Assembly: GCA_030037525.1 (NCBI GenBank)
Contig: JASHRC010000222.1
Span: 1-49,593, forward strand
Length of the DNA stretch: 49,593 nucleotides
Reading direction: 5' to 3'
From: Candidatus Acidiferrales bacterium
GTDB taxonomy: Bacteria > Acidobacteriota > Terriglobia > Acidiferrales > UBA7541
In this document: piece after piece, positions 37,727 to 49,593 of the stretch
Numbering within the stretch: position 1 is the stretch's first letter
Layout of the letters: every line of letters begins with the position of its first letter
Notes under the pieces: model-generated
What the model saw: only the letters and a program-made list of their open reading frames with translations
Databases searched by the model: none
Told to the model about the DNA's origin: nothing
Position numbers and translations under genes: made by a program

Positions 37727-39070
37727 CTACGGACGGGAAGCGCCGCCCAGGACGCGGTGGATGAGCGGGCGGGCCGACACGGGTCGATCTCCGATCGCGT
37801 AGCTTTGGGCGACCCGCTGCTTGGCTAGAGTAGCGCGAGACGGGGAGTTGTAGTCCAGGGTCGCCAGAGGCTCGCCAGCCGAGACCTGATCGCCGACTTT
37901 CTTGTGCAGGACGATTCCGACCGCGGGGTCAATGGAGTCTTCCTTCCTTTCGCGGCCGCCACCCAAAATCACGCACGCAGTTCCGACCGTTTCGCACTCA
38001 ATCTTGCGAACATAGCCGCTCTCTGGGCTCGGCACGTCCACCCTATGTTTCCCCCGCGGCAGCCTTTCGGGATCGTCGATTACGCCGGGATCGCCGCCCT
38101 GCAGGGCGATCATCTCGCGAAATTTTTCCAGCGCCTGGCCCGAGCGAATCAGCCCTTCGGCGAGCTGCTTGCCCTCGGCGAGGGTGCCGGCGCGGCGGCC
38201 GAGATGAAACATCCATGCCGCCAGTTCCAGCGAGAGTTCGCGCAGGTCAGCCGGGCCGCCTCCGCCCAGCGCCTGGATCGACTCTCTGACTTCGAGCGAG
38301 TTGCCGACCGCAAGGCCAAGAGGTTGGTCCATGTCGGTGATGAGCGCGACGGTTTGGGTGCCCATGCGCTGGCCCGCGTCAACCATCAGCTCGGCCAGCG
38401 AAGCCGCCTCCTCGAGTGTTTTCATGAAGGCGCCCGACCCGGTCTTCACGTCGAGAACCAGCGCGTCGATGCCTTCGGCCAGTTTCTTGCTCATGATCGA
38501 AGCGCAGATGAGCTGCGAGCTCTCGATGGTGCCCGTGACGTCGCGCAGAGCATAGAATTTTCGGTCGGCGGGAGCGATTTCGGCGGTCTGGCCGATCATC
38601 GAACAGCCGCAGGCACCAAGCACCTGGCGAAAGCGTTCGAGCGAAAGATCGACCCGAAAGCCGGGGATCGACTCGAGCTTGTCGAGAGTGCCGCCAGTGT
38701 GGCCGAGGCCGCGTCCGCTGATCATCGGGACGATGAGCCCGCCGGCGGCGACCAGGGGAGCCAAGATGAGCGAGGTTTTGTCGCCGACGCCGCCGGTTGA
38801 ATGTTTGTCGACCTTCGCGGCGGCGAATTCGGCAAGGTCGAGCACTTCGCCCGAGCGCAGCATCGCCTCTGTCAGCGCGGCGGTCTCGGCGCGGCTCAGC
38901 CCGCGAATGAGCGCGGCCATCAGCCAAGCGGAGATTTGATAATCGGGAATTTCACCGCGCACTGACCCCATGACGAGGTGGGTGATTTCCGCTCGAGAGA
39001 GCTCGCGTCCATCGCGCTTGCGGCGGATCACTTCGGTGGTGCGGATGGCGGTGTCTTCCGGGGCACTCAA
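37727..39070 (-). CDS. deoA: thymidine / pyrimidine-nucleoside phosphorylase
   Basis: 447 residues, usual size. The phosphate loop KHSTGGVGDKTS (89-100) and the family signature SGRGLGHTGGTLDKLE are intact. It converts thymidine or deoxyuridine plus phosphate to base and deoxyribose 1-phosphate. Its start overlaps the end of cdd by four bases (ATGA), so the two are one operon; divergent from them is deoC. Together they deaminate deoxycytidine, release deoxyribose phosphate and cleave it; the phosphopentomutase needed between is not in the window. Confidence 0.95.
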   Translation of the reverse strand: MSAPEDTAIRTTEVIRRKRDGRELSRAEITHLVMGSVRGEIPDYQISAWLMAALIRGLSRAETAALTEAMLRSGEVLDLAEFAAAKVDKHSTGGVGDKTSLILAPLVAAGGLIVPMISGRGLGHTGGTLDKLESIPGFRVDLSLERFRQVLGACGCSMIGQTAEIAPADRKFYALRDVTGTIESSQLICASIMSKKLAEGIDALVLDVKTGSGAFMKTLEEAASLAELMVDAGQRMGTQTVALITDMDQPLGLAVGNSLEVRESIQALGGGGPADLRELSLELAAWMFHLGRRAGTLAEGKQLAEGLIRSGQALEKFREMIALQGGDPGVIDDPERLPRGKHRVDVPSPESGYVRKIECETVGTACVILGGGRERKEDSIDPAVGIVLHKKVGDQVSAGEPLATLDYNSPSRATLAKQRVAQSYAIGDRPVSARPLIHRVLGGASRP

Positions 39071-39480
39071 CGGAGGCGGAATCCCTCCGGCAGAAGCTTT
39101 TCGATGGGAAGTTCCTGCCAGCCTGTTTGACTGAGGAAAATGACCGTTGAATTCGGACCAAATTCATAGATTACTTGGCGGCAGGCGCCGCACGGCGAAC
39201 AAGGGGTGCCCTCGCGACTGGCCACGGCGATCGCTTGAATTTTCATTTGCGGGCCAACCCCGGCCACGGCCGAAAAGATCGCCGAACGTTCCGCGCAGTT
39301 GGTAAGTCCGTAGGACGAGTTTTCCACATTGCAGCCGGTAAAAAGGGCGCCGGAGGTGGTCAGGAGCGCCGCGCCCACTTGAAATTTTGAGTAAGGCGCG
39401 TAGGCGCTTCGCCGGGCGGAGCGCGCAGCTGCAAGCAGGCGCTCGCGAGTTCCGCGCTTGGATCGGGGACGAGCCGTCAT
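39067..39480 (-). CDS. cdd: cytidine deaminase
   Basis: 137 residues, the homotetrameric short type. Zinc ligands and catalytic Glu are in NCAERSA (Cys62, Glu64) and PCGAC (Cys97, Cys100). SAYAPYSKFQVGAAL and GCNVENSSYG are also typical. It hydrolyses cytidine or deoxycytidine to (deoxy)uridine. Only 45 bases separate it from the divergent deoC start, so a shared control region is likely. Confidence 0.95.
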   Translation of the reverse strand: MTARPRSKRGTRERLLAAARSARRSAYAPYSKFQVGAALLTTSGALFTGCNVENSSYGLTNCAERSAIFSAVAGVGPQMKIQAIAVASREGTPCSPCGACRQVIYEFGPNSTVIFLSQTGWQELPIEKLLPEGFRLR

Positions 39481-39525
39481 CTGCCGGTGCGTTCTTCCGG
39501 GCTAGCGTAGTAAGATTCTCCGTTT

Positions 39526-40242
39526 ATGTCGAGCCGAAATTCAGGGGTCGATCGCCAAGGGATCGGGCCGGGCTGGCAAGCTGTGGCGAAAATGATCGAC
39601 CACACCCTTCTGCGCCCCGACGCCAGGCCCGATGAGATCGTCCGGCTGTGCCAGCAAGCGCGCGAATACGGCTTCGGCGCCGTGGTGATCAATCCCTGCT
39701 ATGTGGCGCTGGCACACAAGCAGCTCGAGAGGAGCGGGGTGAAGGTGGGCGCTGTGGTGGGATTCCCCTTTGGCGCAACGCTCACCAGCGTGAAGGTGTT
39801 CGAAGCCCAAGAGGCGATCAAGCTCGGCGCGAGTGAGATCGATATGGTGATCGCGATCGGCGCGCTCAAGGCGGGCGAGAGGGACAGGGTCTTTGCGGAT
39901 GTTGAAGGCGTGGCCGAAGCAGTTCACGCGCGCGGAGGGCTCCTGAAAGTGATCCTGGAAACGGGACTCCTCACGGATGAAGAAAAAGTGTTGGCTTGCC
40001 AGATCGCTGAACAAGCGCGAGCGGACTTTGTCAAGACCTCCACGGGATTTCTCGGGGGCGGCGCGAAGGTGGAGGACGTTCGCTTGATGCGGAGGGCGGT
40101 CAGGATCGGGGTGAAGGCGTCGGGCGGGATTCGCAGCGCCGCCGATGCGCGTCGGATGATCGAGGCAGGAGCCGACAGGCTGGGAACGAGCAGCGGAGTC
40201 GAGATCGTCACTGAACTGCGCGAGCAAGCAGCCGAACGCTGA
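39526..40242 (+). CDS. deoC: deoxyribose-phosphate aldolase
   Basis: 238 residues, TIM barrel. Schiff-base Lys170 in FVKTSTGF, second Lys197 in GVKASGGIR, and Asp106 in SEIDMVI are present. It cleaves 2-deoxyribose 5-phosphate to glyceraldehyde 3-phosphate and acetaldehyde. It is divergent from cdd-deoA. The last codons (ELREQAAER) overlap, in another frame, the beginning of a subtilisin remnant, so the natural C-terminus may have been changed by that junction; the barrel itself is complete. Confidence 0.95.
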
Positions 40243-40565
40243 AAGCGACGCTTGCCCTGGCGTTGGCCGGGCTGCACGCGCCGAGCGGCCTGTGGGATGA
40301 CACGCCAGTCACCTATTACGGCACGACCGTCCCGGCGGGATACGTGAACCAGCCCGCTGTCAGCGTCGTGAGCCTCTCCCAGGCCCACAGCACGTTCAAC
40401 GTGAGCGGCGCGGGGATCATCGCGGATATTGACACGGGAGTTGACCCCACACACCCGGCCCTCCAGGGTGTGTTGCTCGAGGGGTACGACTTTAGGAGAA
40501 ACCAGCCGGGCGGATCGGAGATGAATGACATCCCCGAGTCCAGCCCGCCCTCATGCAATTCCTGC
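40215..40565 (+). pseudogene. N-terminal remnant of a subtilisin-like (S8) protease
   Basis: An open frame without a good start reads [17 protein letters not shown] (signal-like), VTYYGTTVPAGYVNQPA, then AGIIADIDTGVDPTHPAL and GYDFRRNQPGGSEMND. The DTGVDPTHP box carries the catalytic Asp of subtilases, and the later segment matches acidobacterial secreted S8 enzymes. The His and Ser boxes are absent: after about 40565 the frame loses all similarity. The first codons overlap the 3-prime end of deoC. A truncated relic. Confidence 0.7.
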
Positions 40566-41048
40566 GAACCGGTGTTTGTCGGGAGGCAAGCGGGACGCAA
40601 TTCGATCCCGACGTGGTGCGTCATTTCCTTCCGCTTGCTCAGGCAGAGGTATCGGCTGTGTTCGCTGCCGCCGGAACCACTGTTTCGGCAGTCCTGTGAT
40701 TCCAGGAACACGTCCCGAATATCGCGAGTACCGCAATCTTCTTATTTGTTTCGCCACTCTTTCTCCTCTGGGCTCTGGCCGTCAATCGAGTAAATCTTTC
40801 CAACAGCAGTAAATCCGGCCATATCAACATGTAAGCACCCTCTGTCAACCGCCGCAATCAGCGAGGCTTAGAACCGAAGAGTTGTGGAAGCAGACGTGCA
40901 CCGCGCCTAGTTGGCCGCTCGGGCGCTGCTAACCGTCTCGGTTTGCCAGCTCTTTCGCGGGGCTTGGTGGCCGGTTTCGCTTCTGCCCTTTCCGGGTTGC
41001 GCGTCGCCACCCCGGACTGCTCGCCGGTTATTTCTGAGGGGTTATGAG
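40566..41048. other. long intergenic region, no gene recognised
   Basis: About 480 bases between the subtilase relic and the ABC exporter. Several short frames exist on both strands, but none has a ribosome binding site with a recognisable product. It must hold the promoter of the exporter operon. Confidence 0.45.
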
Positions 41049-42887
41049 ATGGACCAAGCGTCTAGCTCAGTTCGAAGCCAGAGTCCGACTTCCAGGTGGC
41101 ATGACCGAATCAAGGCGCTTGGGAACATTCCTCCCATTTTCCGAATGGTTTGGGAGTCGGCGCCGAAGGCTGTCACCGCCGGATTGCTCTTCCGATTCCT
41201 GGTGGCTTTGACGCCCGTTGCCCTGCTGGCTGTAACGCGATACATCATCGACTCGCTCTACCGCTTCCTGTCGCACGAACAAGCCCTTCCTGGGTACTTC
41301 TGGTGGTTGGTCGCGCTGGAATTCGCATTGGCGTGTTTGGCGACCCTCCTGGGCCGGCTTGTTGATTTTTGTGACAGCGTGCTCGCGGACAAGTTTGTCC
41401 GTCACATCAGCACCAAGATCATGGAGCACGCTTCGCGGCTCGACCTGACGCTCTATGAGGATCCCGCCTTTTGCGACAAGATGGAGCGCGCCCGAGTTCA
41501 GGGGACCGACCGCGTGATGATGATTCAGATGATCGGTCGCCTGATCGGGCAAGCGATTACCACCGTCAGCTTGGCAGCCGGGATCTTTTTCTACTCACCG
41601 TGGCTGTTGCTGTTCTTGGTCCTCTGTGTGGTGCCCGCATTCCTGGGCGAAACGCATTTCGCCTTTCTTGGCTATTCACTGAATTTCGAGCAGACCCCGG
41701 CGCGCCGCCTGCTCGAGTACCTCCGTGTCCTTGGCGGCAGCAAGGAGAGCGCCAAGGAGTTGAAGCTGTTCGGTCTGGGTCCGTTCCTGGTAGGGCGGTA
41801 CAAGAACCTCTCCGACGAGCTTCACCGCGAGACCGTTCAGCTAGCCAAGCGCCGCCTGGTGAGCGGCTCTCTGCTGACGCTGCTCGGTACGGTGGGCTAC
41901 TATGGGACCTACGCCTACGTTATCTACCGAACCGTGCAGGGGGCTTTGAGCTTGGGCCAATTGACCTTCCTCGCGGGGGCCATTGCCGGTGCCAGCACAA
42001 ATATTCAAACGCTGTTCTCCACGTTCTCTGGCATCGCCGACCAGGCTCTGTTCTTAACCGACCTGCTCGAATTTCTTGCCGTTCGGCCGCGGGTGATTTC
42101 CAAACCCGGCGCCCTTTCGACGCCGCGCCCGATTCGGCAGGGAATCGAGTTTCGCAATGTGTCATTTGCTTACCCCTCGAACCCCCAGCTGGTGCTGCGC
42201 GGCATCCACCTTCACCTTTCGCCCGGGGAGCGCCTGGCTTTGGTGGGAGAAAACGGGCAGGGAAAGACCACCATCGCCAAGTTGATCACCCGTCTGTACG
42301 ATCCGACCGAAGGCGAGATCCTGCTCGACGGTCGGGACCTGCGCGAGTACGACTTGGAAGACCTGTGGAAGGAAGTCGGTGTGATTTTTCAAGACTTCAT
42401 GCGCTATGACATGACGGCGCAGGAAAACATCGGCATGGGGCGCGTCGAAGTCGCGAGCAACCGATTTCAGATTCGGGCCGCAGCCATCAAGAGTTATGCC
42501 GAGAACCTGATCACGAAACTGCCGAAAGGCTACGACCAATTGCTCGGCTGCCGCTTTGAGGGCGGCGTTGAGCTCTCGGGCGGAGAGTGGCAGAAGATTG
42601 CACTGGCCCGGGCCCACCTGCGCGATGCGCAGCTGCTGATCCTGGACGAGCCCACCGCGGCGCTCGATGCACGCTCCGAGCACGAGATTTTTGAGCGCTT
42701 CACGGAGCTTGTACGGGGCAAGATGACGATCTTGATTTCGCATCGCTTCTCGACGGTTCGGATGGCCGATCGCATTCTGGTTCTGAAGGGCGGTCGCATC
42801 GCCGAACAAGGGTCGCATGATCAACTGGTGAAAAAAGGCGGCCACTACGCGGAGATGTTCGAGCTGCAGGCCGCCGGCTATCGGTAA
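41049..42887 (+). CDS. ABC exporter, fused permease and ATPase (possible glucan exporter)
   Basis: 612 residues from ATG 41049, with GAGGGG eight bases upstream; a longer frame lacks support. Six membrane helices (about 30-330) followed by the nucleotide-binding domain: Walker A GENGQGKTT (about 400), signature LSGGEWQK (about 509), Walker B LLILDEP (about 530) and the switch His in ISHRFSTV. It is a type IV half-transporter that would act as a homodimer. It is 21 bases before the cyclic-glucan-synthase-like gene, the same pairing as NdvA/ChvA with NdvB/ChvB, so glucan export is a reasonable inference; sequence alone does not prove it. Confidence 0.9.
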   Translation: MDQASSSVRSQSPTSRWHDRIKALGNIPPIFRMVWESAPKAVTAGLLFRFLVALTPVALLAVTRYIIDSLYRFLSHEQALPGYFWWLVALEFALACLATLLGRLVDFCDSVLADKFVRHISTKIMEHASRLDLTLYEDPAFCDKMERARVQGTDRVMMIQMIGRLIGQAITTVSLAAGIFFYSPWLLLFLVLCVVPAFLGETHFAFLGYSLNFEQTPARRLLEYLRVLGGSKESAKELKLFGLGPFLVGRYKNLSDELHRETVQLAKRRLVSGSLLTLLGTVGYYGTYAYVIYRTVQGALSLGQLTFLAGAIAGASTNIQTLFSTFSGIADQALFLTDLLEFLAVRPRVISKPGALSTPRPIRQGIEFRNVSFAYPSNPQLVLRGIHLHLSPGERLALVGENGQGKTTIAKLITRLYDPTEGEILLDGRDLREYDLEDLWKEVGVIFQDFMRYDMTAQENIGMGRVEVASNRFQIRAAAIKSYAENLITKLPKGYDQLLGCRFEGGVELSGGEWQKIALARAHLRDAQLLILDEPTAALDARSEHEIFERFTELVRGKMTILISHRFSTVRMADRILVLKGGRIAEQGSHDQLVKKGGHYAEMFELQAAGYR

Positions 42888-42908
42888 AGAAAGCGTAAGC
42901 GGATTGCA

Positions 42909-45900
42909 ATGGCTACGGTTGAACAGTACCCACTCAATCTGACGCTGCTGGTTCCTGCGCCGGAACCGGCCGTCGCTTCCGGGCCGGCTACGGGCGACGG
43001 AAGGAAGTTTGATTTCTGGCTGCGCGCACTCGAGCGCTGGGAACCGGTTGAGGCCGGAGATTCCGCCGACGCCCTGGAGGGCAGCTGGAAGGCTGCTTCG
43101 AAACGAATCGCCGAGACCGCTGAACAGTTGCGGCAAGTCATCGCGACGGGAAAAGTCCTGCGGGGCGAAGCACGGGTCCTCTCTGACAACCTCACTCTCC
43201 TTCGCGCCGCCCTGGACGAGGCCCACGCCGGCATCGAAGCTGCCCGCAAGCTTCCGCGTGCAAGACAGAAGGTCTCAAACGAGATCGTGCCGCGCGCTTT
43301 TTCGCTCGCTACCACGTATCTCGAATCGGCTCTGTATGCCTTCGATGAACATGATTTCGGAGAGTTTCTTGCGGCCGCCCAGCGGAGTGTTCCGGTTCGC
43401 ATGGCCGAACTGTGGAGCCTCAAGGCCTTTCTCTCGCTCGTGCTTCTCTCGGAAATTGCCAACCTGATTTCCAGACCGATTGCTGCTGCCACCTGCGACT
43501 TTGCGGGCTTTCCCGATTCCGAACTCCGTTTGCCGGCGCTTGTCGAAAGCCTCCGGACGCTCGCTGATTTACAGTGGAAGGGGTTTTTCGAGCGCTACGC
43601 CTCGAGTGAGCAGATTCTGCGCGAAGACCCTTTCGGTGCTTACGAGGGGATGGATTTTGAGAGTCGCGAAGCCTATCGCACGGTCGTTGCCGATCTGGCC
43701 GAGCACTCGGATAGGACCGAGCAGGAAATCGCCCGGTCCGCCGTCAACCTGGCCGAAACGGCCAAACGATCCCGCGGCCAGAGCGCCAGAACGAAGGAAC
43801 GCACAACCCATGTGGGCTACTACTTGATGGGCCCGGGACAAGCTCGCCTGAAAGCCAAAATTGGATATCGGCCGCCATTTCTTCGGCGCATCCGGGAAGA
43901 ACTGTTGCGGTGGCCGGACTTCTTCTACCTCATCGGAATCGAACTGGCTACCCTGGCGGCGCTCGGGTTGTTGGCGAGTTTCTCGCACCTGCCCCCGCTC
44001 CCACTGGTGCTCTTCCTGGTGTTGCCGGCCATTGAGTGCGCCGTGGCGATCCTGAATCTGGTGGCTACGCGCTGGTTTCCTCCCCGGCGCCTCCCCAGGC
44101 TCGATTTTTCCAAGGGAATACCAGACGACTCGGCCGCTTTGGTAGCCGTTCCGATCCTGTTGACCAGCGAGGCGCAGGTGCGGGCTGCCGTTCAGGGTCT
44201 GGAAATTCGGTTCTTGGCCAATCGGGACAAAAACCTGCACTTTGCGCTTCTCACCGATCTCCCCGACTCGAGCGAGGAATTCGATGATCAGGACCGGCTT
44301 GCCGGTTTTTGCTCAGAACTGATCGAGCAGCTCAACCGGAAATACGCCCACGCCCAGAAAGGTTCCTTCTTTCAATTCCATCGAAACCGCACCTACAACC
44401 CCTCGGAAGGGCTATGGATGGGTTGGGAAAGAAAACGGGGGAAACTGCTGGATCTCAACCGATTCCTTCTCCGCCAAAGCGATCGGTTCCCGATTAAAGT
44501 GGGGAATTTGTCGCTTCTCGCTCGCATCCGCTACGTGATTACGCTCGATCTCGACACGCAGCTGCCGGCCGACGCGGGCCGTCGCCTCGTGGGAACGATT
44601 GCGCATCCGCTGAACCGGCCGGTGATCGATCCCGCCACCGATACGGTCGTCGAGGGATACGGCATTCTGCAGCCGCGCGTCGATATCAGCATTCGCTCGG
44701 CGAGCCGTTCTCGCTTCGCTGCTCTTCTTTCCGGGGACACCGGAGTCGACTTCTATACGCGGGCCGTTTCTAACGTGTACCAGGACCTGTTCGGGGAAGG
44801 GATTTTTGCCGGCAAGGGCATTTATGACGTGGAGGCGTTTCAAAGAGTGCTCGAGCATCGTTTCCCTTGTAACGCGGTTCTCAGCCACGATTTGATCGAG
44901 GGCGTGTATGCCCGCACGGGCCTGGTTTCCGATATCGACGTAGTCGACGACTACCCCTCGCATTTCAGCGCCTACAGCCGCAGGAAACACCGCTGGGTCC
45001 GCGGCGACTGGCAGATCATTTTTGGGTTGTTCCCTCGGGTGCGCAACTCGTTCGGCAAGATGGTCCGAAATCCGCTCAGTCATATCTCGCGCTGGAAGAT
45101 CATTGACAACCTTCGCCGCAGCTTGATGGATCTGGCCATCTTCTTGGTTTTCCTCGGCGGATGGCTGTGGCTTCCGGGTAATCCGGCCTACTGGACGCTG
45201 GCGGCGCTTGCCATCATGTTGTTTCCGACGTGTTTCCAGTTCGTGTTCACGATTCTGACGGCCCGGGGCGCCTGGCTGGAGAGCCGCTTCTGGAAGAATC
45301 TGGTGGCTGACTTTGCCAGCGGACAGTCCCGCGTGTTCTTCCGTCTGACGTTTCTCTGCCACCAGACGTTTGTGAGCGTTGACGCGGTGGTGCGAACGCT
45401 GGTTCGCATGAAGTTTACCCACAAGAGGTTGCTGCAGTGGGAGACGGCAGCCGATGCCGAGGTGGGCACCGGACACAGTCTCGTGGATGTCTACCTGCGA
45501 TGGAGCCCGGTCATCGCCGTGGCCATCGGCGCGCTGGCCTTCTTGGTTCGCCCGGCCGCTCTCGGCCCCGCGCTCCCGATCCTGATTCTGTGGGCGGCGT
45601 CCAACAGCATCTCGAAATGGCTCGACAAGCCTCCGCGGCCCGGCGAGTCGCGCATCCGCCTGGAGGATCGCGAGCTCATCAGAAACATGGCTCTCCGGAC
45701 CTGGCGCTTCTTCCGCGAGTACAGCTCCGCGGAAGAGAATTGGCTCATTCCTGACATCGTGCAGCAGACGCCTCCGCAGATTGCGCACCGCATTTCGACC
45801 ACGAATCTGGGCCTTTTGCTCAATGCCCGGCAGGCGGCGCTCGATTTTGGATTCCTCACGCTCGGTGAATTCACGCGAGACACCGGCCGCACGCTCCAGA

Positions 45901-47486
45901 CCGTCGCCCGAATGCCCAAATTCAAGGGCCATCTGTACAACTGGTACGCGACCGACACGCTCGAACCGGTAGCGCCACGTTTCGTTTCCACGGTCGATAA
46001 CGGGAACCTCGTCGCGAGCCTGTGGACCTTAAAACAAGGGTGCCTGGAAGCGGCGAGGCAGCCGATCTTTCGGCCGGCTCTCTGGCGTGGAATCCACGAT
46101 ATCGCCGATTTGATGGTCGAACTGGTCGGCTCTGGGAACAACCCGCTCCTCGCTCGAGCGCGAGATCTCAGCCAAAGAGTGCGCGAGCTGGCCGGTCCTG
46201 ACAGGAACCGGTTCGACGTCATTCCAGGACTGGAAATCGATGTGGCCATCTTTGCCGAAAAAGTTTCGCGCTACGGCGCAAGCGCTGAGGTTTCCTGGTG
46301 GACTCATGAGCTAGAGTTGCGCGTGGCCAACCTGAAGCAACTGGTCGAAACCATGGCGCCGTGGCTTGCTCCGCCGTTCCGCGACTTCCCCATGGTGCGA
46401 TCGAGCGGAATCAAGAACATCCTGGAGAAACTTACCCTGGAATCGCTGCCAGATCTTTACCGGGTCAGCTTCGCCGGCGGTTCCGATGCCGAACTGCTGT
46501 CTGGCGCTTTGAAACAATCGATTCGCGCCGCCGAAGAACTTCTAGACCAACTCGCTTCTCTGGCTCGATCGGCCGACCGCATCGCCCAAGAAATGGACTT
46601 CCGCTTCTTGTACGACGAGGCGAAAAAACAACTTTCCATCGGCTACGACGGACAAGAAGATTCGGTCAGCAAGTATCACTATGATCTGCTCGCGTCGGAA
46701 GCACGCGCAGCCGTTTTCGTGGCTATCGCCAAAGGCGAAATACCTCAAGAGAGCTGGCTCGAGCTGGGTAGATCCTACGCGCCCTACAAAGGTGAGCCCG
46801 TCCTCCGCTCGTGGACCGGGACTGCCTTCGAATACCTGATGCCATGCCTGTGGATGAGAACCTACCCGAACACGCTTCTGGAGAGTGCGAGCAAGGCTGC
46901 CATCCGGGCACAGCAGCGCTTCGTGCCTCGAAGGAAGATTCCTTGGGGGATCTCGGAATCGGCATGCAATCAGCGGAATCCTGATGGCCACTATCGCTAT
47001 CACGCATTTGGCGTGCCCGGCTTGGCCATGAATCGGGACGATTGTTCAGGCGACATCGTGATTGCGCCCTACGCCACGTTTTTGGCGCTTCCGTTTGAAG
47101 CTGCCCGCTCGGTTCGAAACCTCAAGAAGATGAAGAAGCTTGGCTGGCTTTCCGCTTACGGGTTCTATGAGGCCGCTGATTTTACGCCGCGGCGCGTGCC
47201 GGATGGGAAAACGCACGAAATCATCCGCAGCTGGATGGCCCATCACGAGGGAATGACGCTTGTTGCCATTGCCAATGCTCTGTGCGATTCGGCGATGCTG
47301 CGCCGCTTCCACGCCGAACCGTGCGTGGCAGCCCACGAGCGTCTGCTGCACGAGCGTCGACCGAGTGCTCTACCGATTGAGAAGACAAATGAGATCCCGG
47401 AAACGGCGCCCAAGCGCCTGTTGAGTCTCATGGAGCGAGCCATCGACCACCCGGGATTTGCGAGCCTGGCTCCAAAAACGCAGTGA
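42909..47486 (+). CDS. cyclic beta-1,2-glucan synthase-like protein without phosphorylase domain
   Basis: 1525 residues. N-terminal helical region (about 1-330), membrane helices (about 337-390), a GT84-like glycosyltransferase core with TLDLDTQLP (about 546) and RRKHRWVRGDWQ (about 698), more membrane helices (about 737-787 and 860-897), and a glucoamylase-like (GH189-type cyclising) domain that includes RKIPWGISESACN and MAHHEGMTLVAIANAL. It ends shortly after. Classical NdvB/ChvB proteins are about 2800 residues with a further GH94 phosphorylase region that sets ring size; here that region is absent. It probably makes beta-1,2-linked or related glucans of different length control. Middle gene of a three-gene operon. 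Confidence 0.85.
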   Translation: MATVEQYPLNLTLLVPAPEPAVASGPATGDGRKFDFWLRALERWEPVEAGDSADALEGSWKAASKRIAETAEQLRQVIATGKVLRGEARVLSDNLTLLRAALDEAHAGIEAARKLPRARQKVSNEIVPRAFSLATTYLESALYAFDEHDFGEFLAAAQRSVPVRMAELWSLKAFLSLVLLSEIANLISRPIAAATCDFAGFPDSELRLPALVESLRTLADLQWKGFFERYASSEQILREDPFGAYEGMDFESREAYRTVVADLAEHSDRTEQEIARSAVNLAETAKRSRGQSARTKERTTHVGYYLMGPGQARLKAKIGYRPPFLRRIREELLRWPDFFYLIGIELATLAALGLLASFSHLPPLPLVLFLVLPAIECAVAILNLVATRWFPPRRLPRLDFSKGIPDDSAALVAVPILLTSEAQVRAAVQGLEIRFLANRDKNLHFALLTDLPDSSEEFDDQDRLAGFCSELIEQLNRKYAHAQKGSFFQFHRNRTYNPSEGLWMGWERKRGKLLDLNRFLLRQSDRFPIKVGNLSLLARIRYVITLDLDTQLPADAGRRLVGTIAHPLNRPVIDPATDTVVEGYGILQPRVDISIRSASRSRFAALLSGDTGVDFYTRAVSNVYQDLFGEGIFAGKGIYDVEAFQRVLEHRFPCNAVLSHDLIEGVYARTGLVSDIDVVDDYPSHFSAYSRRKHRWVRGDWQIIFGLFPRVRNSFGKMVRNPLSHISRWKIIDNLRRSLMDLAIFLVFLGGWLWLPGNPAYWTLAALAIMLFPTCFQFVFTILTARGAWLESRFWKNLVADFASGQSRVFFRLTFLCHQTFVSVDAVVRTLVRMKFTHKRLLQWETAADAEVGTGHSLVDVYLRWSPVIAVAIGALAFLVRPAALGPALPILILWAASNSISKWLDKPPRPGESRIRLEDRELIRNMALRTWRFFREYSSAEENWLIPDIVQQTPPQIAHRISTTNLGLLLNARQAALDFGFLTLGEFTRDTGRTLQTVARMPKFKGHLYNWYATDTLEPVAPRFVSTVDNGNLVASLWTLKQGCLEAARQPIFRPALWRGIHDIADLMVELVGSGNNPLLARARDLSQRVRELAGPDRNRFDVIPGLEIDVAIFAEKVSRYGASAEVSWWTHELELRVANLKQLVETMAPWLAPPFRDFPMVRSSGIKNILEKLTLESLPDLYRVSFAGGSDAELLSGALKQSIRAAEELLDQLASLARSADRIAQEMDFRFLYDEAKKQLSIGYDGQEDSVSKYHYDLLASEARAAVFVAIAKGEIPQESWLELGRSYAPYKGEPVLRSWTGTAFEYLMPCLWMRTYPNTLLESASKAAIRAQQRFVPRRKIPWGISESACNQRNPDGHYRYHAFGVPGLAMNRDDCSGDIVIAPYATFLALPFEAARSVRNLKKMKKLGWLSAYGFYEAADFTPRRVPDGKTHEIIRSWMAHHEGMTLVAIANALCDSAMLRRFHAEPCVAAHERLLHERRPSALPIEKTNEIPETAPKRLLSLMERAIDHPGFASLAPKTQ

Positions 47487-49000
47487 AACGGCTTCTCGAA
47501 ACTCTGGCATGGCTCGTTTGTGCCTGCCTACTAGCCGCAGCCGCTCGGGCGCAGGCCGGCCAAACCGCATCAACCACCCCAGAGTCCCTCATCGTAGATC
47601 CCTCCACACCCTCGCGCCCTTTTCCGCACTTTTGGGACGAGATGTTTGGCTCGGGCCGGGCGATTCTTAGCCTGCGCAGCAGCTACCGGGACGATTTGCG
47701 CGAAGTCAAGCGCGCGACCGGGCTCCACTACATTCGGTTCCACGCCATCTTCGATGATGAGGTGGGCGTCTACGACGAGGATGAGCAGGGCAACCCCAGG
47801 TACAACTTCTCCTACGTGGATCAGATCTACGATGGCTTGCTCGCAAGCGGAGTGCGTCCCTTCGTCGAGCTCAGCTTCATGCCGCGCAAACTGGCTGCCC
47901 GCGAGATCGTGCAAGCTTTCTGGTACAGGCCCATCGTTTCTCCTCCCAAATCCTGGGAGCGCTGGGGAGAGCTCATCTCGCATTTTGCCCAGCACCTTGT
48001 GGACCGCTACGGTATCGACGAAGTCTCACGGTGGTATTTCGAAGTGTGGAACGAACCGAATCTCGATTTTTGGGCGGGAGAACCGAAGGAAGAGACCTAT
48101 TACAAACTCTATGACACTACGGCCCAGGCGCTCAAGGCCGTAAGCCCCCGCCTGCGCGTGGGGGGGCCTGCGACAGCCCAAGCGGCCTGGGTCGACCGTT
48201 TTATTCGCCATGCGACCGAAAATCACGTTCCCGTCGATTTCGTCTCTACGCACGTCTACGGCAACGACTCGGCAAAAGACGTATTCGGCACCGATCAGGT
48301 GATCCCCCGCACCAAGATGGTCTGCCTGGCCGTAAAGAAGGTCCATACCCAGATTCAGCAGTCGGCTCGGCCCGATCTGCCGCTCATTTGGAGTGAGTTC
48401 AACGCCAGTTACAAGAACGAGCCAGACGTCACCGATTCGCTCTTTATGGGGCCGTGGCTCGCCGACACCATCCGCCAGTGCGACGGTTTGGTGGACATCC
48501 TGTCCTACTGGACCTTTTCCGACGTCTTTGAGGAACAGGGCGTGGTCAAACGCCCGTTTTATGGCGGATTTGGTTTGATCGCAGAGGACGGCCTTCCCAA
48601 GCCGTCCTTCAATGCCTTCAAGCTCTTCAACCGGCTGGGCAGTCGGCGCCTGGAGAACGACTCGACTTCGGCACTGGTAACCAAGCGAGCCGACAACACG
48701 CTGGTCATCGCCGTCTGGAACCTATTCCTGCCCGAGGAGGCCGGCACGCCGAAGAAGGTGAAAATCCGGGTGAAGGGCCGCGAGAGCGCACGCGCCCTCG
48801 TCTATCGCCTCGATTCCGCGCACGGTTCTTTGCTTGCGGCTTATGACCAGATGGGGAGACCCGCCTATCCCGCCTCGCAGCAAATCTCCGAGCTTCGTCA
48901 AGCGGCAAAGCTCGGGCCGCCGGCCGCGATCTCGCTCGCCCAAGGGGAGATGAGCATCGAACTTCCACCCCAGGGTCTGGCGCTTATCGAAGTGAAGTAG
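47483..49000 (+). CDS. secreted GH39-family glycoside hydrolase
   Basis: 505 residues with a signal peptide ending at about ARAQ. GTG start overlaps the stop of the synthase gene as GTGA, so translation is coupled. GH39 (beta-xylosidase / alpha-iduronidase clan A) barrel: acid/base Glu in VWNEPNLDFW (about 190) and nucleophile Glu in IWSEFNASY (about 303). The C-terminal beta domain carries ALVTKRADNTLVIAVWN. In this operon it may trim or recycle the glucan made and exported by the two genes before it; the exact linkage is unknown, as GH39 now covers several specificities. Confidence 0.88.
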   Translation: MKRLLETLAWLVCACLLAAAARAQAGQTASTTPESLIVDPSTPSRPFPHFWDEMFGSGRAILSLRSSYRDDLREVKRATGLHYIRFHAIFDDEVGVYDEDEQGNPRYNFSYVDQIYDGLLASGVRPFVELSFMPRKLAAREIVQAFWYRPIVSPPKSWERWGELISHFAQHLVDRYGIDEVSRWYFEVWNEPNLDFWAGEPKEETYYKLYDTTAQALKAVSPRLRVGGPATAQAAWVDRFIRHATENHVPVDFVSTHVYGNDSAKDVFGTDQVIPRTKMVCLAVKKVHTQIQQSARPDLPLIWSEFNASYKNEPDVTDSLFMGPWLADTIRQCDGLVDILSYWTFSDVFEEQGVVKRPFYGGFGLIAEDGLPKPSFNAFKLFNRLGSRRLENDSTSALVTKRADNTLVIAVWNLFLPEEAGTPKKVKIRVKGRESARALVYRLDSAHGSLLAAYDQMGRPAYPASQQISELRQAAKLGPPAAISLAQGEMSIELPPQGLALIEVK

Positions 49001-49304: not shown

Positions 49305-49593
49305 ATGAACCATAAACGGCTGGTGGTGATCGTGTTCCTTCTGGCGGTATTGGTCGCCCAAGCGAGAGTAGCCCGGGCGGACTTATATGGCAGCATCCGG
49401 GGCACGGTTATCGATCAAACCGGGGCGGCGGTCGTTGGCGTGGCGCTGACGGCGACCAATGTGGCCACAAACGTCTCGCAATCGGTGACCAGTGGCGCCG
49501 ATGGTTCTTACAGCTTCCTCGAACTGCCAATCGGGGATTACACGCTCCAAGCAGAAAAGTCAGGGTTCGAGACATTCACCGCGACCCGGATCC
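49305..49593 (+). CDS. TonB-dependent receptor, N-terminal part (cut by window edge)
   Basis: 96 codons visible. The ATG has GAGGAGG about seven bases upstream. A signal peptide (LVVIVFLLAVLVAQARVARA) is followed by a carboxypeptidase-regulatory-like domain: GSIRGTVIDQTGAAVVGVAL, then ATNVATNVSQ and DGSYSFLELPIGDYTLQAEK. This start is typical of the large acidobacterial TonB-dependent outer-membrane receptors, which import polymer fragments or siderophores; the barrel lies outside the window. It follows the glucan operon by 304 bases with its own upstream region. Confidence 0.88.
   Translation, partial: MNHKRLVVIVFLLAVLVAQARVARADLYGSIRGTVIDQTGAAVVGVALTATNVATNVSQSVTSGADGSYSFLELPIGDYTLQAEKSGFETFTATRI

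What the first reader, a model, noticed from the sequence alone, without database searches (positions are those of the whole stretch)
41049..49000. Glucan operon: exporter, short cyclic-glucan synthase, GH39 hydrolase
The synthase keeps the transferase and cyclising (GH189-type) parts but lacks the GH94 part that controls chain length in NdvB/ChvB. The exporter gene is 21 bases away and a secreted GH39 enzyme overlaps the synthase stop. This may be a new arrangement for making, exporting and trimming a beta-glucan, with the hydrolase replacing the phosphorylase as size control.
Basis: partly seen in the sequence, partly recalled or inferred. Interest (0 to 1): 0.75.

Follow-up and report, generated by a model that had tools for sequence, protein, structure and literature searches.

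The report
GH94-free cyclic glucan synthase operon
A soil bacterium carries a half-length version of the enzyme that makes ring-shaped sugar polymers, without the part thought to set ring size; it sits beside an export pump gene, and the sugar-cutting enzymes nearby seem to belong to the same pathway but do not stand in for the missing part.

Summary
[quoted passage not shown] The catalytic and priming residues checked are kept. The short synthases form one clade (47 of 47 rows) nested among GH94-type synthases: one loss of the C-terminal half, seen here in Acidobacteriota only. No NdvB-type GH94 was found in 42 genomes with only the short type. The exporter lies directly upstream in 41 of 41 short loci. 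The same GH39, the exporter and a secreted GH144-type beta-1,2-glucanase (SGL) also flank full-length GH94 synthases, and GH39 adjoins a minority of short ones. The window contig most likely continues in a second contig (30 of 31 terminal bases match) that carries an outer-membrane receptor and the SGL. Best reading: a make-and-export unit plus a periplasmic beta-1,2-glucan turnover set, with ring size set without phosphorolysis. It matters because deleting this half abolishes function in Agrobacterium, yet a whole clade lacks it. The GH39 substrate is unproven; its sugar pocket still looks like a xylosidase.

The parts
41049..42887 (+). ABC exporter (ABCB/MsbA-type permease-ATPase), 612 aa; proposed glucan exporter, not of the NdvA/ChvA equivalog
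   Evidence: (MsbA 291 bits against a cut-off of 602; ChvA model 177 bits against 585); upstream of 41 of 41 short CGS
42909..47486 (+). [quoted passage not shown]
44754..44756 (+). Codon of Y616, counterpart of the primer tyrosine Y694 of Agrobacterium Cgs
   Evidence: alignment; Y in 47 of 47 short and 95 of 95 long rows; Y694 role from PMC10901819 passages
45801..47435 (+). GH189 cyclisation (beta-1,2-glucanotransferase) domain, residues 965-1509
   Evidence: AlphaFold model pLDDT 85.5, top PDB match 8wy1 (TM 0.81)
46698..46700 (+). Codon of E1264, counterpart of GH189 acid/base E1356 of TiCGS (E1300 of the R. radiobacter enzyme)
   Evidence: PMC10834661 passages, PMC11842490 passages
46956..46958 (+). 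Codon of E1350, counterpart of GH189 nucleophile E1442 of TiCGS (E1386)
   Evidence: PMC10834661 passages
47483..49000 (+). GH39 glycoside hydrolase with N-terminal signal-like segment, 505 aa; acid/base E191, nucleophile E305
49305..49593 (+). Start of an outer-membrane beta-barrel receptor ORF (TonB-dependent, Oar-like, by recall), cut by the contig end; most likely continues in G000:C149:1-3222
   Evidence: PF25183 4e-192 on the C149 part. SGL follows at C149:3233-4606 (-), PF10091 2e-71, nearest PDB 8xul XcSGL 7e-70

Best explanation
A two-gene make-and-export unit plus a linked periplasmic turnover set for beta-1,2-glucan. The short synthase primes itself on Y616, extends a beta-1,2-glucan from UDP-glucose with its GT84 domain and closes the ring with its GH189 domain. 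There is no phosphorolytic trimming step, so ring size is set by GT processivity and by the minimum length GH189 accepts. The ABC protein exports the product to the periplasm. The secreted GH144-type enzyme (just past the contig end) cuts beta-1,2-glucan; GH39 removes terminal units or a substituent from the fragments; the outer-membrane receptor may import fragments. Shown: gene order, domains, residues, clade, absence of NdvB-type GH94, linkage. Inferred: product, ring formation, export, GH39 substrate, recycling.
For: GT84/GH189 alignment to solved Cgs and TiCGS; D547, D549, D661, Y616, W696 in 47 of 47 short rows, and E1264, E1350, H1445, H1446 in 46 of 46 short rows that cover them; GH189 model matches 8wy1. 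GH94 in 0 of 16 short-type genomes of the order against 14 of 14 long-type ones, and no NdvB-type GH94 in 26 short-only class genomes, four of them in one contig. Short clade monophyletic, support 100, one change on the tree. ABC directly upstream in 41 of 41. ABC orthologues (64-72%) occur in nine long-CGS genomes of the family, within 6 kb of the long synthase in five, and the window's ABC groups with two of these (98/89) inside a 13-row clade mixing both kinds (100/99): one exporter lineage goes with both synthase types. 23 of 27 close GH39s in 36 genomes adjoin SGL, CGS or ABC, and 2 more share a locus with SGL. [quoted passage not shown] An isolated GH189 domain makes rings of DP 17 and up (PMC10834661 passages).
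Against: Removing the C-terminal half of Agrobacterium Cgs abolishes function in vivo (PMC10901819 section 9), so a synthase without it might be inactive or make linear glucan. The residues named as the sugar site of a GH39 xylosidase are kept in this GH39, apart from one Phe-to-Trp (hand mapping), and its nearest structures are beta-xylosidases. Some GH39s of this type in the class sit near an FGGY kinase or a GH38 mannosidase without an SGL in the stretch read (L270, L275, L276). 7 of 20 class genomes without a short CGS still have this GH39, all 7 without any CGS match. Most short loci with good flanks have neither GH39 nor SGL nearby (24 of 33).
Confidence: 0.62

Rival explanations
1. One reading: GH39 replaces GH94 as the size control; the exported glucan is trimmed to length by GH39.
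For: GH39 overlaps the synthase stop here and follows the short CGS in 8 of 16 short-type genomes of the order.
Against: GH39 also adjoins GH94-type synthases (L166, L168, L173, L111, L126); within 6 kb of only 6 of 33 well-flanked short loci; an exported enzyme would not reach the enzyme-bound chain before ring closure, and the GH39 pocket looks like that of an exo-xylosidase (inference).
Confidence: 0.07
2. The short synthase makes long linear (or mixed) beta-1,2-glucan rather than rings, because the missing half is the scaffold that arranges the chain for cyclisation; the SGL then cuts it to size, as OpgD is thought to do for linear periplasmic glucans in E. coli.
For: Truncated Agrobacterium Cgs fails in vivo. 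An opgD mutant makes longer chains (PMC11842490 passages), and OpgG and OpgD are beta-1,2-glucanases (PMC12369401 passages). A secreted-looking SGL-type gene is in the locus.
Against: GH189 acid/base, nucleophile and HH pair are intact across the clade, which would be odd if cyclisation were lost; the isolated GH189 domain of TiCGS cyclises by itself; SGL also flanks GH94-bearing synthases.
Confidence: 0.2
3. GH39, SGL and receptor are a catabolic locus for foreign beta-1,2-glucan or another glycan, with no role in the cell's own glucan; their place beside the synthase is shared regulation or chance.
For: Receptor-GH39-SGL loci occur in class genomes without CGS (L284, L285, L287); LacI-type regulator-like ORFs are seen in some GH39 loci (L284, L289, by eye); xylosidase-like GH39 site.
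Against: Repeated linkage to CGS and ABC of both types in several lineages, and to CGS in three phyla; overlap with the synthase stop in the window; in the class, GH39 in 23 of 26 short-CGS genomes against 7 of 20 others (not corrected for kinship).
Confidence: 0.25

Closest known systems
[quoted passage not shown] tumefaciens, PDB 8rf0/8rf9)
   Same: N-terminal, GT84 and GH189 domains, primer tyrosine and catalytic residues
   Different: Lacks the whole GH94 half (median 26 residues after a GH189 anchor against 1322 in long rows) that trims the chain and is needed, apparently as scaffold, in Agrobacterium
TiCGS cyclisation domain, founding GH189 (PDB 8wy1)
   Same: Fold and catalytic residues of the cyclisation domain
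   Different: Studied as a cut-out domain; here the GT-GH189 unit ends naturally after GH189
NdvA/ChvA/Cgt glucan exporter
   Same: ABCB-type exporter encoded with a CGS
   Different: Scores far below the ChvA and glucan-ABC model cut-offs (177 of 585, 223 of 733 bits); directly upstream of the synthase
GH39 beta-xylosidases XynB1, CcXynB2, XacXynB
   Same: Fold, catalytic glutamates and nearly all listed -1/+1 residues
   Different: One residue shorter in the +1 loop, Trp for Phe at the 118 position (hand mapping); linked to beta-1,2-glucan genes
CmGH1, a GH39 beta-glucosidase (5z3k)
   Same: GH39 fold; shows that glucosidase activity exists in the family (PMC6933502 passages)
   Different: Distant (16% identity); lacks the two catalytic Glu; reported on pNP-glucoside and cellobiose
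GH144 beta-1,2-glucanases (XcSGL 8xul, CpSGL 5gzk)
   Same: The SGL gene of G000 matches XcSGL at 7e-70
   Different: Found beside the synthase of the same polymer

Membership tests
[quoted passage not shown]
   D547, D549, D661, W696, Y616 in 47 of 47 short rows; motif names recalled
[quoted passage not shown]
   E1264, E1350; model to 8wy1 TM 0.81
[quoted passage not shown]
   hence a variant, not a standard CGS
[quoted passage not shown]
   no product data
NdvA/ChvA glucan exporter (TIGR01192, NF010178) | Score over the curated cut-off | tested here: not met
   177 against 585 and 223 against 733 bits
GH39 | Family profile, fold and two catalytic Glu | tested here: met
   E191 and E305 invariant in the 14 rows of A3
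GH39 beta-xylosidase | Activity on beta-xylosides | not testable with these tools
   pocket residues mostly kept; genomic context points to beta-1,2-glucan
GH144 (SGL on C149) | Kinship to GH144 enzymes | tested here: met
   8xul 7e-70, 5gzh 2e-46; XcSGL is called GH144 in PMC12102758 passages; the sister-family structure 8xuk matches at only 1e-13; no tree of the clan was built

The most novel reading that the evidence does not exclude
A whole clade of bacteria makes beta-1,2-glucan rings with a synthase that has dispensed with both the length-control phosphorylase and its scaffold, and turns the glucan over with a GH39 sub-family whose natural substrate is beta-1,2-glucan fragments, a specificity I found reported for no GH39; synthases of either type have been swapped under one constant exporter-hydrolase module.
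Probability: 0.33. Interest if true: 0.68.

Novelty: new variant of a known kind. Interest (0 to 1): 0.55.

Why it matters
Why the Agrobacterium synthase fails without a half whose catalytic activity it hardly needs is only hinted at in the structural paper (a scaffold), and what sets ring size without that half is open. A natural clade of intact-looking synthases ending right after GH189, some in named isolates such as Terriglobus albidus DSM 26559 and Granulicella, makes the question directly testable: compare product sizes with and without GH94. The exporter and SGL links give a genetic handle on glucan biology in Acidobacteriota, and the GH39 link names a candidate new activity for that family.

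Tried and rejected
GH39 as stand-in for GH94: rejected, since GH39 also sits by GH94-type synthases. ABC as a mark of short synthases only: suggested, overturned, which found orthologues in nine long-CGS genomes of the same family. A separate GH94 gene elsewhere: searched in 16 short-type genomes of the order and 26 short-only genomes of the class. Three of the 26 gave partial matches over the cut-off in ORFs of 739-947 aa (G188, G257, G101) and one a match below it (G391); I read these as relatives, not NdvB-type, without a further test. Mis-assembly or chance as source of the short form: rejected, since it is closed by a stop in 45 loci besides the window (exact duplicates removed, close kin not). 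GH39 specificity from the active site: inconclusive; the mapping was done by hand from the alignment and the residue list, and the Phe118 position is the least sure. Literature: no paper on a GH94-free CGS or on GH39 acting on beta-1,2-glucan turned up in the searches. That is a limit of an open-access library and of the terms, not proof of absence.

Rows dropped or called by length: L180, L185, L197 (identical cores); L167 and L174 (no CGS); L039, L040, L041, L047, L048 and the short-flank loci L001-L030 (except L007, L013) and L129-L157 were not put into the table; 6 split or partial short rows and 4 open-ended rows were kept out of the counts. Of the 95 long rows, 83 show GH94 in the same ORF; the other 12 are long by ORF length alone. 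One of these 12, L069 (Chloroflexi), is closed by a stop at 1991 aa 98 bases before its contig end, so I cannot tell whether it is a second kind of shortened CGS or a broken one. The first ABC tree lacked the window's own row and held the odd row L043; one search replaced it.
Full report
Observation. Profiles give ABC_tran/ABC_membrane, PF10091 as the only match over its cut-off in the synthase, and GH39. The synthase aligns with Agrobacterium Cgs (8rf0) over the N-terminal, GT84 and cyclisation parts and stops near the equivalent of residue 1544, where the phosphorylase half begins. GH94 gave no match in the 4.2-Mb genome, 93% complete.

Is the short synthase a working enzyme? The GT84 residues D547, D549, D661, W696 and the counterpart of the primer tyrosine (Y616 for Y694) are present in 47 of 47 short and 95 of 95 long rows. 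The GH189 acid/base E1264, nucleophile E1350 and the pair H1445-H1446 are present in 46 of 46 short rows that cover them and 95 of 95 long rows; E1308 is Ala in one short row. Of the 95 long rows, 83 show GH94 in the same ORF and 12 are called long by length. Roles come from passages of PMC10834661, PMC10901819 and PMC11842490. An AlphaFold model of residues 965-1525 (mean pLDDT 85.5) matches the TiCGS cyclisation domain 8wy1 best (TM 0.81, E 7e-34).

One loss, one clade. In 95 genomes of the order, 37 hold a CGS match at 1e-30. I sort these into a short type (G000 and 15 others, several on broken contigs) and a long type of about 2900 aa, mostly 38-40% identical to the window's. GH94 is found in 0 of 16 short-type and 14 of 14 long-type genomes tested (30 of the 37). 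In a draw of 396 phylum genomes, 104 hold a CGS. Of 29 of these tested for GH94, 26 are short-only: 22 have no match, three have partial matches over the cut-off in ORFs of 739-947 aa and one a sub-cut-off match. Two (G219, G461) carry both a short and a long CGS, and their GH94 lies in the long one; G383 is long. On a FastTree of 142 cores the 47 short rows form one clade (support 100) inside the long forms, sister to one long form of the same class (L207), with a single change of state. Among 80 named loci, all 19 closed short forms come from Acidobacteriota records.

Exporter. Of 41 short loci with at least 1.9 kb upstream, 41 have the ABC gene directly upstream on the same strand. Against my first impression, the ABC is not a mark of the short type. 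Orthologues of 64-72% identity exist in nine long-CGS genomes of the window's family, within 6 kb of the long synthase in five of the loci read. On an IQ-TREE of 50 ABCs the window's ABC groups with two ABCs from long-CGS genomes (98/89), next to one from a short locus (99/94), in a 13-row clade (100/99) that mixes both kinds; two further short-linked ABCs of the family (L037, L040) fall outside it. The long synthases of the family form a separate clade with other Acidobacteriota long forms. So the synthase seems to have been exchanged under a constant exporter. Of 66 long loci elsewhere with 6 kb or more of flank in total, none has this ABC (250 bits or more) within 6 kb. The ABC is not an NdvA/ChvA equivalog by score.

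GH39 and the hidden partner. Next to GH39 in relatives lies a secreted-looking PF10091 gene (SGL; [quoted passage not shown] PMC12102758 passages). In the window's own genome the SGL is on contig C149. The last 31 bases of the window and the first 31 of C149 match at 30 positions and continue one reading frame of an outer-membrane receptor (PF25183). The ORF beside SGL on C149 (355 aa, no Pfam match) has homologues of 42-72% identity in 13 other loci (14 with the duplicate L180), each of which also shows an SGL; in L034 and L046 it lies just past the CGS-GH39-SGL cluster. So the locus most likely reads ABC > CGS > GH39 > receptor > < SGL. The SGL copy matches 8xul at 7e-70.

How firm is the GH39 link? 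In 36 genomes of the order that I chose (30 with CGS), 27 GH39 matches are at or below 1e-80. Of these 23 directly adjoin SGL, CGS or ABC, two more share a locus with SGL (about 5-6 kb, receptor between), and two do not (G076:C40, and G046:C350 at a contig edge). In the class, 23 of 26 short-CGS genomes and 7 of 20 others have this GH39 (Fisher p 4e-4, not corrected for kinship). Synthase-adjacent GH39 is a minority state: 6 of 33 short loci with 6 kb on both sides (SGL 9 of 33), and 8 of 16 short-type genomes in the order. GH39 also adjoins GH94-type synthases in the window's genus (L166, L168, L173). A second GH39 clade, in the order CGS-GH39-SGL, does so in a Chthoniobacterales and a gammaproteobacterial genome whose GH39s are 58% identical. 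This removes the idea that GH39 replaces GH94 and supports GH39 as a beta-1,2-glucan pathway enzyme. Against that: mapped by hand on the residue list for XacXynB (PMC7242879 passages), E191, E305, F196, Y259, W343, E351, F363 and Y310 are all kept, only Phe118 becomes Trp147, and the +1 loop is one residue shorter. So the sugar pocket is still xylosidase-like, and the nearest folds are XynB enzymes. In 20 class regions around GH39 that I chose, 8 hold an SGL and 13 a receptor; some hold an FGGY kinase or GH38 instead.

Mechanism and verdict. The best reading is a make-and-export pair whose synthase closes rings without phosphorolytic sizing, with SGL and GH39 as periplasmic turnover enzymes shared with GH94-type systems. 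The isolated TiCGS GH189 domain makes rings of DP 17 and above (PMC10834661 passages), which gives a way to set a lower size limit without GH94. The strongest point against is that truncating the C-terminal half of Agrobacterium Cgs, wholly or in part, leads to loss of activity in the growth assay, while the GH94 catalytic mutant has only a minor effect (PMC10901819 section 9): the missing half hints at a scaffold there. A clade that lives without it is the interesting part. One case of decay fits a shared pathway: G065 has an ABC-CGS fused remnant and no match for SGL or GH39.

What was read. PMC10901819: passages and section 9. PMC11842490: passages and section 11. PMC10834661, PMC7242879, PMC6933502 and PMC12369401: passages. 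PMC12102758: abstract, outline and passages. Other papers: search listings only.

Noticed in passing
window 49305-49593 and L248 (G000:C149): Window contig end overlaps the start of contig C149 by 31 bases with one mismatch, in frame through an outer-membrane receptor; C149 brings the SGL gene.
   Followed up: yes
L248:4638-5705 (+), homologues in L267, L255, L158, L076, L034, L178, L268, L046, L056, L057, L062, L280, L059: Uncharacterised 355-aa protein (no Pfam match) encoded divergently from SGL on C149 and found in many SGL loci: a possible further member of the pathway.
   Followed up: partly
window 40263-40793: ORF with a subtilase-like stretch by eye (DIDTGVDPTHPAL) but no Pfam match; possibly a decayed S8 peptidase.
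   Followed up: partly
window 37727-40242: Pyrimidine nucleoside phosphorylase and DeoC-type aldolase with a cytidine-deaminase-like ORF (by eye) between them: a nucleoside salvage cluster upstream, seemingly unrelated.
   Followed up: partly
L043 (G065:C30): ABC N-terminal part fused in one 711-aa ORF to a middle piece of CGS; the genome gave no match for SGL or GH39: a decayed locus.
   Followed up: partly
L111, L126: CGS(long)-GH39-SGL cassette in Verrucomicrobiota and Gammaproteobacteria with GH39s 58% identical: suggests lateral transfer.
   Followed up: partly
L069:4028-10003: Chloroflexi CGS closed by a stop at 1991 aa just before the contig end: second shortened kind or broken gene, undecided.
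   Followed up: no
L270, L271, L272, L278: Tandem GH39 genes behind a receptor gene in class genomes; in L270 an FGGY sugar kinase is near: GH39 paralogues may serve other glycans.
   Followed up: partly
L195/L213 (G219), L197/L214 (G461): Genomes that carry both a short and a long CGS at separate places; natural test pairs.
   Followed up: no
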